Shown: piece by piece, positions 25,273-29,937 of the stretch
Numbering within the stretch: the stretch's first letter is position 1
Layout: each line of letters opens with the position of its first letter
Assembly (NCBI GenBank): GCA_947442065.1
Contig: CANEUY010000006.1
Location: 1 to 35,601 of the forward strand
DNA from: Verrucomicrobia subdivision 6 bacterium
GTDB taxonomy: Bacteria > Verrucomicrobiota > Verrucomicrobiia > Methylacidiphilales > Verrucolacustridaceae
Direction: 5' to 3'
Length of the DNA: 35,601 nt
Position numbers and translations under genes: made by a program
Notes under the pieces: model-generated
The model's database searches: none
What the model was told of the DNA's origin: nothing
Seen by the model: only the letters and a program-made list of their open reading frames with translations

Positions 25273-26181
25273 ATGAGCACGGCTGTTTTTCAACCAGGAC
25301 AGATGATTTTTCGTGAGGGGGAACTCAGCCAAGAGGCCTATCGGATTCTTCGGGGTCGGGTCGAGATCAGTATTACGGGAGAAGGGAAACCGGTCGTTTT
25401 GGCTCAACTGGGGGAAGGCGACATTTTTGGTGAGATGGCCATGGTGGACGAGCGTCCCCGGTCGGCCTCGGCCCAATGTATGGAGGTGACGGAGTGTGAG
25501 GTTCTTACTGCGGAAAACTTCAATGAAGCGGTTTTACAGCGTCCGGAAATCCTGATCCCGTATTTAGCGTCCTTTTTTGAGCGGTTACGAACCGCCAACG
25601 ACCGGTTGCGGTTGGAAATGCGCCTACGCGCTCAGGCCGAACAAAAGGCGCTTGCGGGAATTGAGCCGGCCCCAGTCGTCCGGGCCGTTCCGGTCGCAAC
25701 CCCGGGGTTGCCTCCCTCGCTGGAAAGAACCCGGACGATTCCATCGGTTCCTCCTTCGATCCCTGTTTCCGTGCCTACGGCTCCTGCTCCCCAAGGGGGC
25801 TATCAGTCCGTGGTCCTGACAGCCCTCAATGACCATGCCCGGGCCCGAATGCCCGAGGGAACGGTCACGATTCAGAAGTTTCCCTTCCGGGTTGGTAGAA
25901 AACATGATGCCCCGGGAAAAGGGGTCACGGTCTTTGCCGCCAATGACCTGCCGATTGCGGATGAGAAACCTTATCAGATTTCGAGGAATCACTGCTCCAT
26001 TGAGAGGGAGGGGGATCACTTCTTTGTCCGGGACCGCGGAAGTTCTTTGGGCACGTTGGTGAATGATGTTCCGATCGGTCTTGCTGAAAACACCCTGACT
26101 CAGGATTTACGTCCCGGGGTAAATGAGATTCTGCTCGGCTCGGATGACAGCCAGTTTCGTTTTCAGGTCACCTTAAGCTAG
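25273..26181 (+). CDS. Cyclic-nucleotide-binding domain plus FHA domain protein
   Basis: A soluble 302-residue protein with no DNA-binding domain. Residues about 5-115 form a cNMP-binding domain with the phosphate-binding cassette FGEMAMVDERPRSASA (52-67), including the glutamate and the arginine that contact cAMP ribose and phosphate. A short helix leads to a Pro/Ala/Val-rich linker (about 130-185). The C-terminal FHA domain (about 195-290) has FRVGRKHD, ISRNHCSI, RGSSLGTLVND, the residues expected to bind phosphothreonine. It thus could join cAMP levels to a Ser/Thr-phosphorylated partner. No Ser/Thr kinase is seen here; a CHASE2 adenylate cyclase lies at 14365-16464. Confidence 0.9.
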   Translation: MSTAVFQPGQMIFREGELSQEAYRILRGRVEISITGEGKPVVLAQLGEGDIFGEMAMVDERPRSASAQCMEVTECEVLTAENFNEAVLQRPEILIPYLASFFERLRTANDRLRLEMRLRAQAEQKALAGIEPAPVVRAVPVATPGLPPSLERTRTIPSVPPSIPVSVPTAPAPQGGYQSVVLTALNDHARARMPEGTVTIQKFPFRVGRKHDAPGKGVTVFAANDLPIADEKPYQISRNHCSIEREGDHFFVRDRGSSLGTLVNDVPIGLAENTLTQDLRPGVNEILLGSDDSQFRFQVTLS

Positions 26182-26367: not shown

Positions 26368-27201
26368 TCAGAACCCGGAACGGGTTTTTTCTTCTTCGAT
26401 TCCGGACCGCAGGCGGCGACTGAGCTTCGGCCGGATGAATCCATACATCAGGTAACCGCAAAACAAGATTGCCAGGGAGTATTGGTAGGTCTGCACAACC
26501 AGGGCCAGGGTGGCCACAATCAGGAGCATCCGAGGCACGGGCCTTTGGCTTCGCCAATCAATCGTTTTGAAGCTGGGGTAACTGACCTTGCTGAACATCA
26601 TGAAGCTCAAGAAAAGAAGGAGGGCGGCGAGCACATACTTAAAATTTCCGATGATGCGTTCGGATTCGTAGTATTTCAGGAGAAGAAGGGTGACAGAGGC
26701 CACCAGCCCGGCCGCTGCAGGGATGGGGAATCCGGAGAAATCTTTCGTTCGGTTGGCCGGCTCGGGATGAAGCGCCAAGGTGTTAAAGCGTGCGAGACGC
26801 ATCGCACCGCAGACAAGATAGACAAAGGCGATCATCCAACCTAACCGGGCAGGAAGTTCTGCAAGGACGATCTTAAACACCAGGAGTGCGGGGGCGATTC
26901 CGAAGGAAATCACATCGGCGAGAGAATCGAATTCCCGCCCGAATGCGCTTTCGTGTCCGCCCAAGCGGGCAACCCGGCCGTCCAGCATGTCGAAAATGAA
27001 TGCGCCGAGGATCCAAAGGAGGCTCGTCTGATAATGCTGGATCCAGGCACTGTCATCCGAGGCCTGAAGAAGGCTCCCCTGAATGATCTGGAGAACGGCC
27101 ATAAAGCCGCAGAAGAGGTTTCCCGCCGTCATCAGGCTGGGGAGAAGATAAGCAACGCCTTTGCGGGCGGTGGCGGGTGGACGATTTTTTACGCGGGCCA
27201 T
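26368..27201 (-). CDS. pssA: CDP-diacylglycerol-serine O-phosphatidyltransferase
   Basis: Makes phosphatidylserine from CDP-diacylglycerol and serine in the inner membrane. The 277-residue protein has the CDP-alcohol phosphotransferase motif DG-x2-AR-x8-G-x3-D-x3-D complete at 74-96 (Asp74, Gly75, Ala78, Arg79, Gly88, Asp92, Asp96). Multiple membrane segments follow. GNLFCGFMAV at the N-terminus is typical of the integral-membrane PssA type II. It overlaps the end of psd by 13 bases, so the order psd-pssA is transcribed together and yields phosphatidylethanolamine. Confidence 0.95.
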   Translation of the reverse strand: MARVKNRPPATARKGVAYLLPSLMTAGNLFCGFMAVLQIIQGSLLQASDDSAWIQHYQTSLLWILGAFIFDMLDGRVARLGGHESAFGREFDSLADVISFGIAPALLVFKIVLAELPARLGWMIAFVYLVCGAMRLARFNTLALHPEPANRTKDFSGFPIPAAAGLVASVTLLLLKYYESERIIGNFKYVLAALLLFLSFMMFSKVSYPSFKTIDWRSQRPVPRMLLIVATLALVVQTYQYSLAILFCGYLMYGFIRPKLSRRLRSGIEEEKTRSGF

Positions 27202-27815
27202 AGAGCCAGGATGGTTTGGCCGCCTACGACACGTTGGCCGACTTGGACTTGAGGGGTGCAGGAGGAAGGAAAATAGAGGTCGGTTCTGGATCCGAACCGG
27301 ATCATCCCGATTCGCTCTCCGGTGGTGACGGTATCTCCGGGTTTCTTCCAGCCCACAATCCGCCGGGCGATAAGGCCGGCGATCTGGCGTACAAGGATGG
27401 GGCCACGGAGGGTTCGGAGAAGCCAGGTTTGATTTTCGTTCCGGATATCGACCTCGAGGTGTCGGGCGTCGAGAAATTCACCAGCCGAGTAGTGGGTTTT
27501 TTCGATGGTGCCCGAGAAGGGGCTGCGGTTGACGTGGACATCGAGGACGGAGAGGAAAATTCCGACGCGGCGAAACTTTCCGAGGCCGAACGCAGGGTCT
27601 TCCGCCTCGTCGACACATATCACCCTGCCGTCGGCGGGGCTGATGAGGGCGAGTGGATTGGCAGGAGGGGTGCGTTCCGGATCCCGGAAGAAGAGGAGCA
27701 GGCCAATCAGGAGGAGGGATCCTAAGAGGACTCCGATCATCCACCCCATCCACCAAGAGAGGCCAAGGAAAGCGGCGGCGCCGATGAGGAACGGTCTTGC
27801 TTCACGTAAAGCCAT
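27189..27815 (-). CDS. psd: Phosphatidylserine decarboxylase, short type
   Basis: Converts phosphatidylserine to phosphatidylethanolamine with a pyruvoyl cofactor. The 208-residue proenzyme has two membrane segments in residues 8-43, then FFRDPERTPP, SPADGRV (Asp62), DVHVNRSP (His94) and the cleavage site FGSR with Ser176, which becomes the pyruvoyl residue; Asp/His/Ser form the self-cleavage triad. The compact length and FGS site match the short PSD-like class rather than the LGST class of E. coli. The gene runs divergently from cofG, and the gap is only 29 bases if cofG starts at TTG. Confidence 0.94.
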   Translation of the reverse strand: MALREARPFLIGAAAFLGLSWWMGWMIGVLLGSLLLIGLLLFFRDPERTPPANPLALISPADGRVICVDEAEDPAFGLGKFRRVGIFLSVLDVHVNRSPFSGTIEKTHYSAGEFLDARHLEVDIRNENQTWLLRTLRGPILVRQIAGLIARRIVGWKKPGDTVTTGERIGMIRFGSRTDLYFPSSCTPQVQVGQRVVGGQTILALWPA

Positions 27816-27844: not shown

Positions 27845-28837
27845 TTGAAAGCCGTTTGCGAAGAGCCTGTTTTGTGGCGAAAGGATTTCAAATCCGGAAG
27901 GCCGGTGACTTATTCGCGCTCTATCACCCTTGTTCTGACCCATGACTGCCCCTGGCGTTGTCGCTATTGTGGATTCCGGTCGGACCACGAGGGGCTAATT
28001 TCGGAGGATAGGATCGACCGGATTGTGCGGGAGGCAAGTGAGGGAGGGGCCAAAGAAGCTCTGCTGATTTCGGGAGAGCGACCGGGAACCATGCCGCACA
28101 TCGGAAGCGAATTGGCGCAGAGGGGGTATCCAGATTTCTGGAGTTTTGCGGCGGTCGTGGCGGACCGATTCCGGGAGGCGGGGCTTTTTCCGCATGGGAA
28201 TTTCGGCCGAATGACGGAGCACGAACTTCGCAGGCTCCGTCCTCACTTTGTTTCCATGGGGATGATGCTGGAGAGTGCTGTGGATGACCCGGGATGTGCG
28301 CCTGAGAAAAAGGCGGTGGGGCGAAAAGCGGGAATTGAGGCGGCCGGTCAGGCCAAGGTTCCGTTTACGAGCGGGATTTTGGTGGGTTGGGGAGAGAGTC
28401 AAAAATCCCGACTGCAATCCTTGGAGGTGCTGTCAGGGATACATTCTCAGTACGGGCATCTGCAGGAAATTTTGATTCAACGGTATGTTCCAAATCAGGG
28501 CTCGAGTTGGCCGGCAGGTGCTCCACCGACTTTGGAGGAGTACCGGGAGATGATCGATTTTTGGCGTAAGCATGCTCCCGGGGTGGCGATCCAGATTCCT
28601 CCCAATCTGGAACCCCGTTGGTTTGAGTTGCTGGACGAACTGGATGACTTGGGCGGAATTTCATGGGCCAAGGATGAGGTCAATCCCAGTCGTCCCTGGG
28701 AACAGCTGGAACATTATCGAAATCTTTGCCGGAGGGCCGGGAGGGAGTTAAAGGAGAGGCTTCCAGTTTATCCAACGCATGCGACCGAGGAATGGTTGGA
28801 TCCCATCTGGCAAAACCGAGTGAGGGAAGAAGGATGA
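27845..28837 (+). CDS. cofG: FO synthase subunit 1, CofG-like radical SAM enzyme
   Basis: With CofH, makes FO (7,8-didemethyl-8-hydroxy-5-deazariboflavin), the deazaflavin core of F420 and a light-harvesting pigment of some photolyases. The radical SAM cysteines are Cys35, Cys39 and Cys42 (CPWRCRYC). Family sequence continues with ISGERPG, FPHGNFG, SMGMMLES, KVPFTSGILVGWGES, YGHLQEILIQ, AIQIPPNL, GGISWAKDEVNPSRPWEQLE and ERLPVYP. MqnC and MqnE of the futalosine route lack this set. From the TTG at 27845 it has 330 residues; GTG at 27905, right at VTYSRSITL, where many CofG proteins begin, is an alternative with GGAAGG just before it. The stop overlaps the cofH start by four bases. Confidence 0.86.
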   Translation: MKAVCEEPVLWRKDFKSGRPVTYSRSITLVLTHDCPWRCRYCGFRSDHEGLISEDRIDRIVREASEGGAKEALLISGERPGTMPHIGSELAQRGYPDFWSFAAVVADRFREAGLFPHGNFGRMTEHELRRLRPHFVSMGMMLESAVDDPGCAPEKKAVGRKAGIEAAGQAKVPFTSGILVGWGESQKSRLQSLEVLSGIHSQYGHLQEILIQRYVPNQGSSWPAGAPPTLEEYREMIDFWRKHAPGVAIQIPPNLEPRWFELLDELDDLGGISWAKDEVNPSRPWEQLEHYRNLCRRAGRELKERLPVYPTHATEEWLDPIWQNRVREEG

Positions 28838-29937
28838 GGGATTACTGGAAAATGCCCTTGGATGAATTACGGGAAGAGGCCCGGGAAAAGACATTGCGCC
28901 AACATGGTCGTAAGGTGACTTATGTCGTCAATCGAAACGCCAATTTCACACGAGTCTGTAATGTGGGGTGTTCTTTTTGTGGTTTCGGACGCCGTCCGGG
29001 AACCAAGGGGGCGAACTCCGACCGGATTGATGAAGTGGTGGCTCGTGTGGCCAAGACCCCCTGGGTGACGGAAGTTTGCCTTCAGGGGGGGATCGATCCC
29101 GATTTGCCGCCAGAATATTATTTCGATTTGGTGCGTGCTCTACGAGAGGCATTTCCCTGGATGCATCTGCACGCCTTTTCGCCCATGGAGATTGATTCCC
29201 TTTGCGCCAAAGCGGATTGCGAACCGGAAGAGATCCTTTCCAAGATGCGGGCGGCCGGGGTGGGAACGATTCCCGGAACGGCGGCGGAAATTCTTGTCGA
29301 TGAAGTGAGGAGGAAAATCTCCCGAAACAAATTGCCGGTCGCCCGATGGGTGCAAATCGTCCGTGCGGCTCACCGAACAGGTTTAAAGTCGAGCGCCACC
29401 ATCCTGTTCGGCCATGTGGAAAGATGGGAGGATATCCGGGCACATTTCGATGTCTTGCGGTCTGTTCAGGAGTCGACGGGTGGATTCACCGAACTGGTTC
29501 CTTTGGCCTTTATCCCGTATCAAAATCGGCTCGGATCCATGCTGGCCCGCCGGGCGGGGAGTATGGGGGTGCTTGAGGAGAGGATTCGGAAGCGGGCGAT
29601 GCGGCTTTATCCTTTGGCACGAATGGTTTTAGGAGAGGTCATCCCGAATTTGCAAACGAGTTGGGTTAAGCTGGGGGTGGAGGGGGCGGTCGAATCCTTG
29701 GGGTGGGGATGTAATGATTTTGGAGGCACTCTCTATGAAGAATCGATCACCCGCTCGAGCGGAGGAAAACACGGGGAAAAAATGGAACCCGATGAAATTG
29801 AGGCGGCCATCCGAGGGGCGGGTTATCAGGCCTCTTTGCGTTCGACTGTGTACGGCCCGGTGAAAAATCGTTTTTCCCTCGTAAAAAAGAGTTGTCACCC
29901 TCCTGCGAGGGAGCATCTTGTCCCTCGTATCGCTTAA
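28834..29937 (+). CDS. cofH: FO synthase subunit 2, CofH-like radical SAM enzyme
   Basis: Condenses a tyrosine-derived unit with 5-amino-6-ribitylaminouracil, giving the substrate for CofG. From the ATG at 28834 (GGAAGAAGG upstream) it has 367 residues. Radical SAM cysteines are Cys42, Cys46 and Cys49 in CNVGCSFC after VVNRNANFTRV. The rest follows CofH: CLQGGIDPDLPPEYY, HLHAFSPMEI, TIPGTAAEILVDEVRR, LFGHVERWEDI, TGGFTELVPLAF, QTSWVKLGVEG, NDFGGTLYEESITR. The PGTAAEIL wording separates it from MqnC, which has PGGGAEIL. The four-base overlap with cofG implies coupled translation. Genes cofC, cofD and cofE for F420 are not in this window. Confidence 0.85.
   Translation: MRDYWKMPLDELREEAREKTLRQHGRKVTYVVNRNANFTRVCNVGCSFCGFGRRPGTKGANSDRIDEVVARVAKTPWVTEVCLQGGIDPDLPPEYYFDLVRALREAFPWMHLHAFSPMEIDSLCAKADCEPEEILSKMRAAGVGTIPGTAAEILVDEVRRKISRNKLPVARWVQIVRAAHRTGLKSSATILFGHVERWEDIRAHFDVLRSVQESTGGFTELVPLAFIPYQNRLGSMLARRAGSMGVLEERIRKRAMRLYPLARMVLGEVIPNLQTSWVKLGVEGAVESLGWGCNDFGGTLYEESITRSSGGKHGEKMEPDEIEAAIRGAGYQASLRSTVYGPVKNRFSLVKKSCHPPAREHLVPRIA

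What the first reader, a model, noticed from the sequence alone, without database searches (positions are those of the whole stretch)
27845..29937. CofG-CofH pair, the FO (deazaflavin) synthase, in a likely Verrucomicrobiota genome
Two radical SAM genes with four-base overlap, each with CxxxCxxC, match CofG and CofH by their diagnostic segments (GMMLES, IQIPPNL, PGTAAEIL, NDFGGTLYEES). F420/FO synthesis is well known in archaea and Actinobacteria and also occurs in some other bacteria; I do not recall a well-described case in the PVC group. With no cofC, cofD or cofE nearby, FO could serve as a photolyase antenna instead of becoming F420.
Basis: partly seen in the sequence, partly recalled or inferred. 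Interest (0 to 1): 0.72.

Follow-up and report, generated by a model that had tools for sequence, protein, structure and literature searches.

The report
FO synthase pair feeding DNA photolyases
Freshwater Verrucomicrobiota carry a genuine two-gene FO (deazaflavin) synthase but lack the later F420 genes, and their light-driven DNA-repair enzymes keep the residues that hold FO, so the pigment most likely serves as a light antenna for repairing sun damage, as in cyanobacteria.

Summary
In detail: cofG (27845-28837) and cofH (28834-29937) overlap by ATGA, each with CxxxCxxC. CofG exceeds both NCBIfam equivalog cut-offs. CofH falls just under its own (365.3 against 374.1 bits) but is resolved as CofH by tree and diagnostic residues; the genome has a separate MqnC-clade gene. 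All 21 genomes of the genus (named relatives are lake Verrucomicrobia, several labelled subdivision 6) carry cofG; three other families of the order also have it. None of the 24 cofG+ genomes has a CofD, CofE or luciferase-family (typical F420-dependent) gene. 23 of 24 have a photolyase. Their class I photolyase is nearest the FO-binding Synechococcus elongatus enzyme and keeps its FO-pocket residues (apolar 41, Arg51, Leu55) in 19 of 19 scorable sequences; cofG- relatives of that clade mostly lose Arg51 (2 of 10 keep it) and Leu55 (1 of 10). Best explanation: FO made as photolyase antenna, not as F420 precursor: a new member of a known kind, apparently unreported in this phylum. In passing: 16 cofG+ relatives also encode a 'short photolyase-like' FAD domain with its missing antenna domain as a separate downstream gene keeping the FO-pocket residues. 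FO production and binding remain to be shown.

The parts
27845..28837 (+). cofG: 7,8-didemethyl-8-hydroxy-5-deazariboflavin (FO) synthase subunit CofG, radical SAM, TTG start
   Evidence: NF004884 270.6 bits (cut-off 209), TIGR03550 243.9 (cut-off 213.35); CofG clade in tree; 47 of 63 CofG-conserved columns kept
27947..27970 (+). CofG [4Fe-4S] radical SAM motif CPWRCRYC (C35, C39, C42)
   Evidence: translation; invariant column set
28834..29937 (+). cofH: 5-amino-6-(D-ribitylamino)uracil--L-tyrosine 4-hydroxyphenyl transferase CofH, radical SAM
   Evidence: TIGR03551 365.3 bits (cut-off 374.1), MqnC 291.6, MqnE 257.8; CofH_C PF19288; 11 of 14 CofH-specific residues
28957..28980 (+). CofH [4Fe-4S] radical SAM motif CNVGCSFC (C42, C46, C49)
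   Evidence: translation
28834..28837 (+). ATGA overlap of the cofG stop and cofH start
   Evidence: sequence
27189..27815 (-). psd (phosphatidylserine decarboxylase), divergent neighbour; genomic context only, not functionally linked
   Evidence: PF02666 E 1.6e-41; same position beside cofG throughout the genus and in two other families
26368..27201 (-). pssA-like CDP-alcohol phosphatidyltransferase, genomic context only
   Evidence: PF01066; synteny

Best explanation
The two genes make FO. CofH joins the hydroxybenzyl part of tyrosine to 5-amino-6-ribitylaminouracil, and CofG closes the ring to give 8-hydroxy-5-deazariboflavin; each uses S-adenosylmethionine and a [4Fe-4S] cluster (established chemistry of these families; inferred here by homology). 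Because the lineage lacks CofD and CofE, FO is not turned into F420. It is bound by the cell's DNA photolyases, most clearly the class I CPD photolyase, where it absorbs blue light near 440 nm and passes the energy to FAD for repair of UV lesions, as in Synechococcus elongatus. Shown here: presence, family membership, conservation, absence of the later pathway, presence of photolyases and their pocket residues. Inferred: catalysis, FO binding, physiological role.
For: Equivalog-level CofG match and CofH far above MqnC/MqnE. Tree and diagnostic residues. cofG in 21 of 21 genus genomes and 24 of 62 in the order, in one syntenic place beside psd in three families, so vertically kept. CofD 0 of 24 and CofE 0 of 24 cofG+ genomes; luciferase-like proteins, a main F420-dependent group, 0 of 24. 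At least one photolyase in 23 of 24 cofG+ genomes against 16 of 36 cofG- ones. Own class I photolyase: best solved structure is the S. elongatus FO enzyme, 391.7 bits against 337.7 for the E. coli enzyme. Ile41/Arg51/Leu55, named as FO contacts in PMC9178010, correspond to I/R/L in the own protein; Arg and Leu in all 19 scorable cofG+ sequences, Arg in 2 of 10 and Leu in 1 of 10 cofG- members of the same clade, while 99 of the 158 columns invariant in the cofG+ set are kept by all 10. An FeS-BCP photolyase, the S. elongatus version of which binds FO, is also in the own genome.
Against: The residue correlation rests on only two phylogenetically independent contrasts. Two cofG- genomes (G028, G031) keep Arg51, and separate or fused photolyase antenna domains of Deinococcus keep it too, so Arg51 alone is not proof of FO. 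The CofH score is slightly below its curated cut-off. CofG departs from 16 of 63 otherwise conserved columns. RibD, needed for the CofH substrate, was not recognised above cut-off in the 82% complete MAG. G008 has cofG but no photolyase was found (63% complete).
Confidence: 0.78

Rival explanations
1. FO is an intermediate of F420 or a modified F420, with CofD and CofE replaced by unrecognised or unbinned genes.
For: Other Verrucomicrobiota families carry cofG with cofD; MAGs are incomplete.
Against: No CofD or CofE in any of 24 cofG+ genomes, two of them at least 95% complete, although the same searches find them in control genomes; no luciferase-like F420 enzyme family; the F420-type CofG/CofH of the same phylum belong to a separate clade.
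Confidence: 0.06
2. The pair makes a related but different product, because this CofG clade has changed otherwise conserved positions (e.g. genus-specific QRY.PN for QNF..K).
For: 16 of 63 CofG-conserved columns differ; CofH is below its curated cut-off.
Against: All cluster cysteines and 47 of 63 columns are kept; some altered positions are shared with a Lokiarchaeota and another bacterial CofG; photolyases of the same genomes keep the FO-pocket residues.
Confidence: 0.07
3. FO is exported as a shared pigment or signal to neighbouring plankton rather than used by the maker.
For: FO crosses membranes readily (stated in PMC8498797); a cofG- relative (G028) keeps the FO-pocket residues, as a scavenger might.
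Against: The makers have their own photolyases in 23 of 24 genomes.
Confidence: 0.04
4. The genes are futalosine-pathway enzymes (MqnE/MqnC) or other radical SAM proteins misnamed.
For: Family resemblance of CofH to MqnC/MqnE (291.6 and 257.8 bits).
Against: A separate MqnC-clade gene is present in the own genome, and MqnC- and MqnE-clade genes in the genus; CofH-specific residues are kept and MqnC/MqnE-specific ones are absent.
Confidence: 0.01

Closest known systems
FO synthase CofG/CofH (FbiC when fused)
   Same: Two radical SAM proteins with the family motifs; closest annotated matches on plasmids are cofG, cofH and fbiC records
   Different: Separate but overlapping genes; CofG only about 32-38% identical to F420-type sequences and forms its own deep clade; no F420 genes in the genome
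Synechococcus elongatus FO-photolyase system (SePhrA, SePhrB, SePhrC plus cofG/cofH)
   Same: Class I photolyase with Ile41/Arg51/Leu55, an FeS-BCP, in most relatives a short photolyase-like protein, separate cofG and cofH
   Different: Verrucomicrobiota, not cyanobacteria; cofG and cofH overlap here, whereas the cyanobacterial locus tags are far apart (H6G84_11875 and H6G84_12985); relatedness to cyanobacterial CofG/CofH not tested, none could be fetched
F420-type CofG/CofH of other Verrucomicrobiota (families f52, f55)
   Same: Same phylum, same enzymes
   Different: Score 462-473 bits to the CofG model against 244 here, group elsewhere in the tree, and cofD is present

Membership tests
CofG | Above the curated equivalog cut-off | tested here: met
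   270.6 against 209 and 243.9 against 213.35 bits
CofG | CxxxCxxC cluster motif and placement with CofG | tested here: met
CofG | All family-conserved columns | tested here: inconclusive
   47 of 63 kept; the role of the altered positions is unknown, and no CofG relative was found among PDB sequences
CofH | Above the curated equivalog cut-off | tested here: not met
   365.3 against 374.1 (TIGR03551) and 345.6 against 426 (NF005609); orthologues in G008, G045, G018 and G019 pass TIGR03551. The miss is small and the next two tests separate CofH from its neighbours, so the name is kept on those
CofH | Groups with CofH, not MqnC/MqnE | tested here: met
   SH-aLRT 85 with CofH, MqnC and MqnE clades each 100
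CofH | CofH-specific residues | tested here: met
   11 of 14 kept in all nine order sequences; 1 of 31 MqnC-only, 1-4 of 28 MqnE-only
CofH/CofG | Produces FO | not testable with these tools
   needs expression and spectroscopy
F420 biosynthesis | CofD and CofE present | tested here: not met
   0 of 24 cofG+ genomes
F420 biosynthesis | CofC present | not tested
FO-antenna class I photolyase (own genome, L080) | Class I enzyme with N-terminal antenna domain | tested here: met
   PF00875 and PF03441; 391.7 bits to 1owl
FO-antenna class I photolyase (own genome, L080) | FO pocket: apolar 41, Arg51, Leu55 | tested here: met
   I/R/L in the alignment
FO-antenna class I photolyase (own genome, L080) | Bound FO | not testable with these tools
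   needs purified protein

The most novel reading that the evidence does not exclude
An FO-only lineage outside cyanobacteria and algae has kept FO synthesis to serve several photolyases at once: the class I enzyme, the iron-sulfur 6-4 photolyase, and (in most relatives) a two-gene photolyase in which the FAD domain ('short photolyase-like') and the FO antenna domain are separate proteins encoded in reversed order. The last would mean that short photolyase-like proteins are not all antenna-less ancestors but can be halves of a split enzyme.
Probability: 0.3. Interest if true: 0.72.

Novelty: new member of a known kind. Interest (0 to 1): 0.5.

Why it matters
It extends FO-antenna DNA repair, per the F420 review read here (PMC8498797) a trait of cyanobacteria, unicellular algae and possibly some higher eukaryotes, to small-genome lake bacteria of another phylum, and warns that cofG/cofH alone must not be read as F420 production. 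Because cofGH is present or absent within one order while class I photolyases persist, the group offers a natural test of how the antenna pocket changes once FO is gone.

Tried and rejected
MqnC/MqnE identity: rejected by tree and residue test. Recent transfer: no close donor found, and the conserved position beside psd in three families argues for vertical inheritance; no relative in viral contigs. Contamination of the MAG: rejected, same flanks in all relatives. F420 use: rejected for lack of CofD, CofE and luciferase-like enzymes. Solved-structure look-up found no CofG and only MqnE for CofH. Literature: no held paper has CofG, CofH and Verrucomicrobia together; the F420 review read does not mention Verrucomicrobia. 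RibD check in the own MAG gave only short deaminase-type matches, inconclusive. Cyanobacterial CofG/CofH could not be fetched, so their relation to this clade is open. The FeS-BCP antenna loop (H-L-R-Y) resembles the S. elongatus-like subgroups rather than the DMRL-binding Y-V-x-H, but two cofG- relatives have a similar loop, so it is not diagnostic. A Foldseek search of the viral library was started but not collected.

Full report
Observation. Two overlapping ORFs lie at the stated place: cofG 27845-28837 and cofH 28834-29937 on the + strand. Their products match CofG (270.6 bits, cut-off 209) and CofH (365.3 bits, cut-off 374.1; MqnC 291.6, MqnE 257.8). Pfam gives Radical_SAM for both and the CofH/MqnC C-terminal domain for the second. 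Codon differences against relatives are concentrated at third positions (for example 65/49/170 at positions 1/2/3 of cofG), as expected of working genes.

Whose genome. The window is contig 6 of a 1.33 Mb, 82% complete genome. The nearest named relatives are Verrucomicrobia MAGs, several from lakes and several labelled subdivision 6. cofG is in 21 of 21 genomes of the genus and in 24 of 62 of the order, including one genome each from three other families. The order pssA-psd-cofG-cofH is kept across the genus; pssA-psd-cofG is also kept in families f5 and f2. The pair is therefore an old, vertically kept trait and not a binning error.

Family. In a tree of 78 CofG, CofH, MqnC and MqnE sequences, CofG is in the CofG clade with relatives of its order and an unnamed bacterium (L034). 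CofH lies outside the MqnC and MqnE clades (both 100) and beside other CofH (85). Of 14 residues found in reference CofH and never in MqnC or MqnE, 11 are kept in all nine order sequences; of 31 MqnC-only and 28 MqnE-only residues, 1 and 1-4 are present. The own genome has a separate MqnC-clade gene. CofG keeps 47 of 63 reference-conserved columns with all three cysteines; the 16 changes are a caveat.

What FO is for. CofD and CofE families are absent from all 24 cofG+ genomes, and so is the luciferase-like superfamily. Elsewhere in the phylum, families f52 and f55 have an F420-type CofG (462-473 bits) together with CofD, in a separate part of the tree. At least one photolyase is present in 23 of 24 cofG+ genomes against 16 of 36 others. 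The own class I photolyase (L080) matches the FO-containing S. elongatus enzyme best. PMC9178010 names Arg51 (salt bridge to FO), Ile41 and Leu55 as pocket residues. The own protein has Ile, Arg and Leu there. Arg51 and Leu55 are kept in every scorable cofG+ sequence; position 41 is Ile or Leu. Of ten cofG- class I sequences in the same clade, two keep Arg51 and one keeps Leu55, although 99 of 158 columns invariant in the cofG+ set are kept by all ten. The trend fits release of the pocket when FO is gone, but only two independent contrasts exist, and the exceptions (G028, G031) are real. An iron-sulfur 6-4 photolyase, the S. elongatus version of which binds FO, is also present.

Extra finding. 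Sixteen of 24 cofG+ genomes (1 of 36 others; not the own MAG) encode a FAD-domain protein, about 260-290 aa, of short photolyase-like type, with PF03441 but no N-terminal antenna domain. In all sixteen, the next ORF on the same strand, overlapping or within a few dozen bases, is a ~136 aa protein (in G045 the reading frame is broken). It weakly matches PF00875. Its predicted fold (pLDDT 81.6) has the Thermus photolyase with 8-HDF as best PDB match, and 15 of 15 intact copies keep an apolar residue at 41, Arg51 and Leu55. Deinococcus sp. QL22 has the same overlapping pair, and two other Deinococcus carry the two parts fused in that reversed order. Four held papers use the term 'short photolyase-like'; the passages read in three of them describe the family as lacking the antenna domain or do not mention a partner. 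This is a lead, not part of the given finding.

Verdict. An FO synthase pair, most likely for photolyase antennae: known machinery in a lineage where it seems unreported. Identity about 0.93; antenna role about 0.8; FO production and binding unproven.

Noticed in passing
L100:520-1715 (-), L099, L101, L102, L216-L228 (relatives; not in the own MAG): Short photolyase-like FAD-domain gene followed directly by a separate ~136 aa gene with the photolyase antenna-domain fold and FO-pocket residues: a split, order-reversed photolyase; fused in the same reversed order in Deinococcus wulumuqiensis and D. psychrotolerans (L229, L231), an overlapping pair in Deinococcus sp. QL22 (L230).
   Followed up: partly
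L147:399-1931 (-) (own genome contig C27): Iron-sulfur 6-4 photolyase (FeS-BCP, PF04244) with antenna loop H-L-R-Y, unlike the DMRL-binding Y-V-x-H; possible second FO user.
   Followed up: partly
L157, L158, L159, L160 (families f52, f55): Other Verrucomicrobiota with an F420-type CofG and a CofD gene in the same genome, apparently capable of F420 synthesis.
   Followed up: partly
L107, L192 (G024): In family f5 cofG stays beside psd but cofH has moved to another contig, so the pair is not always kept together.
   Followed up: no
L123 (G044): Class I photolyase and FeS-BCP genes lie side by side in a cofG- relative; its FeS-BCP has the DMRL-type loop Y-V-P-H.
   Followed up: no
window 25273-26181 (+): Protein with a cyclic-nucleotide-binding domain followed by an FHA domain.
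   Followed up: no
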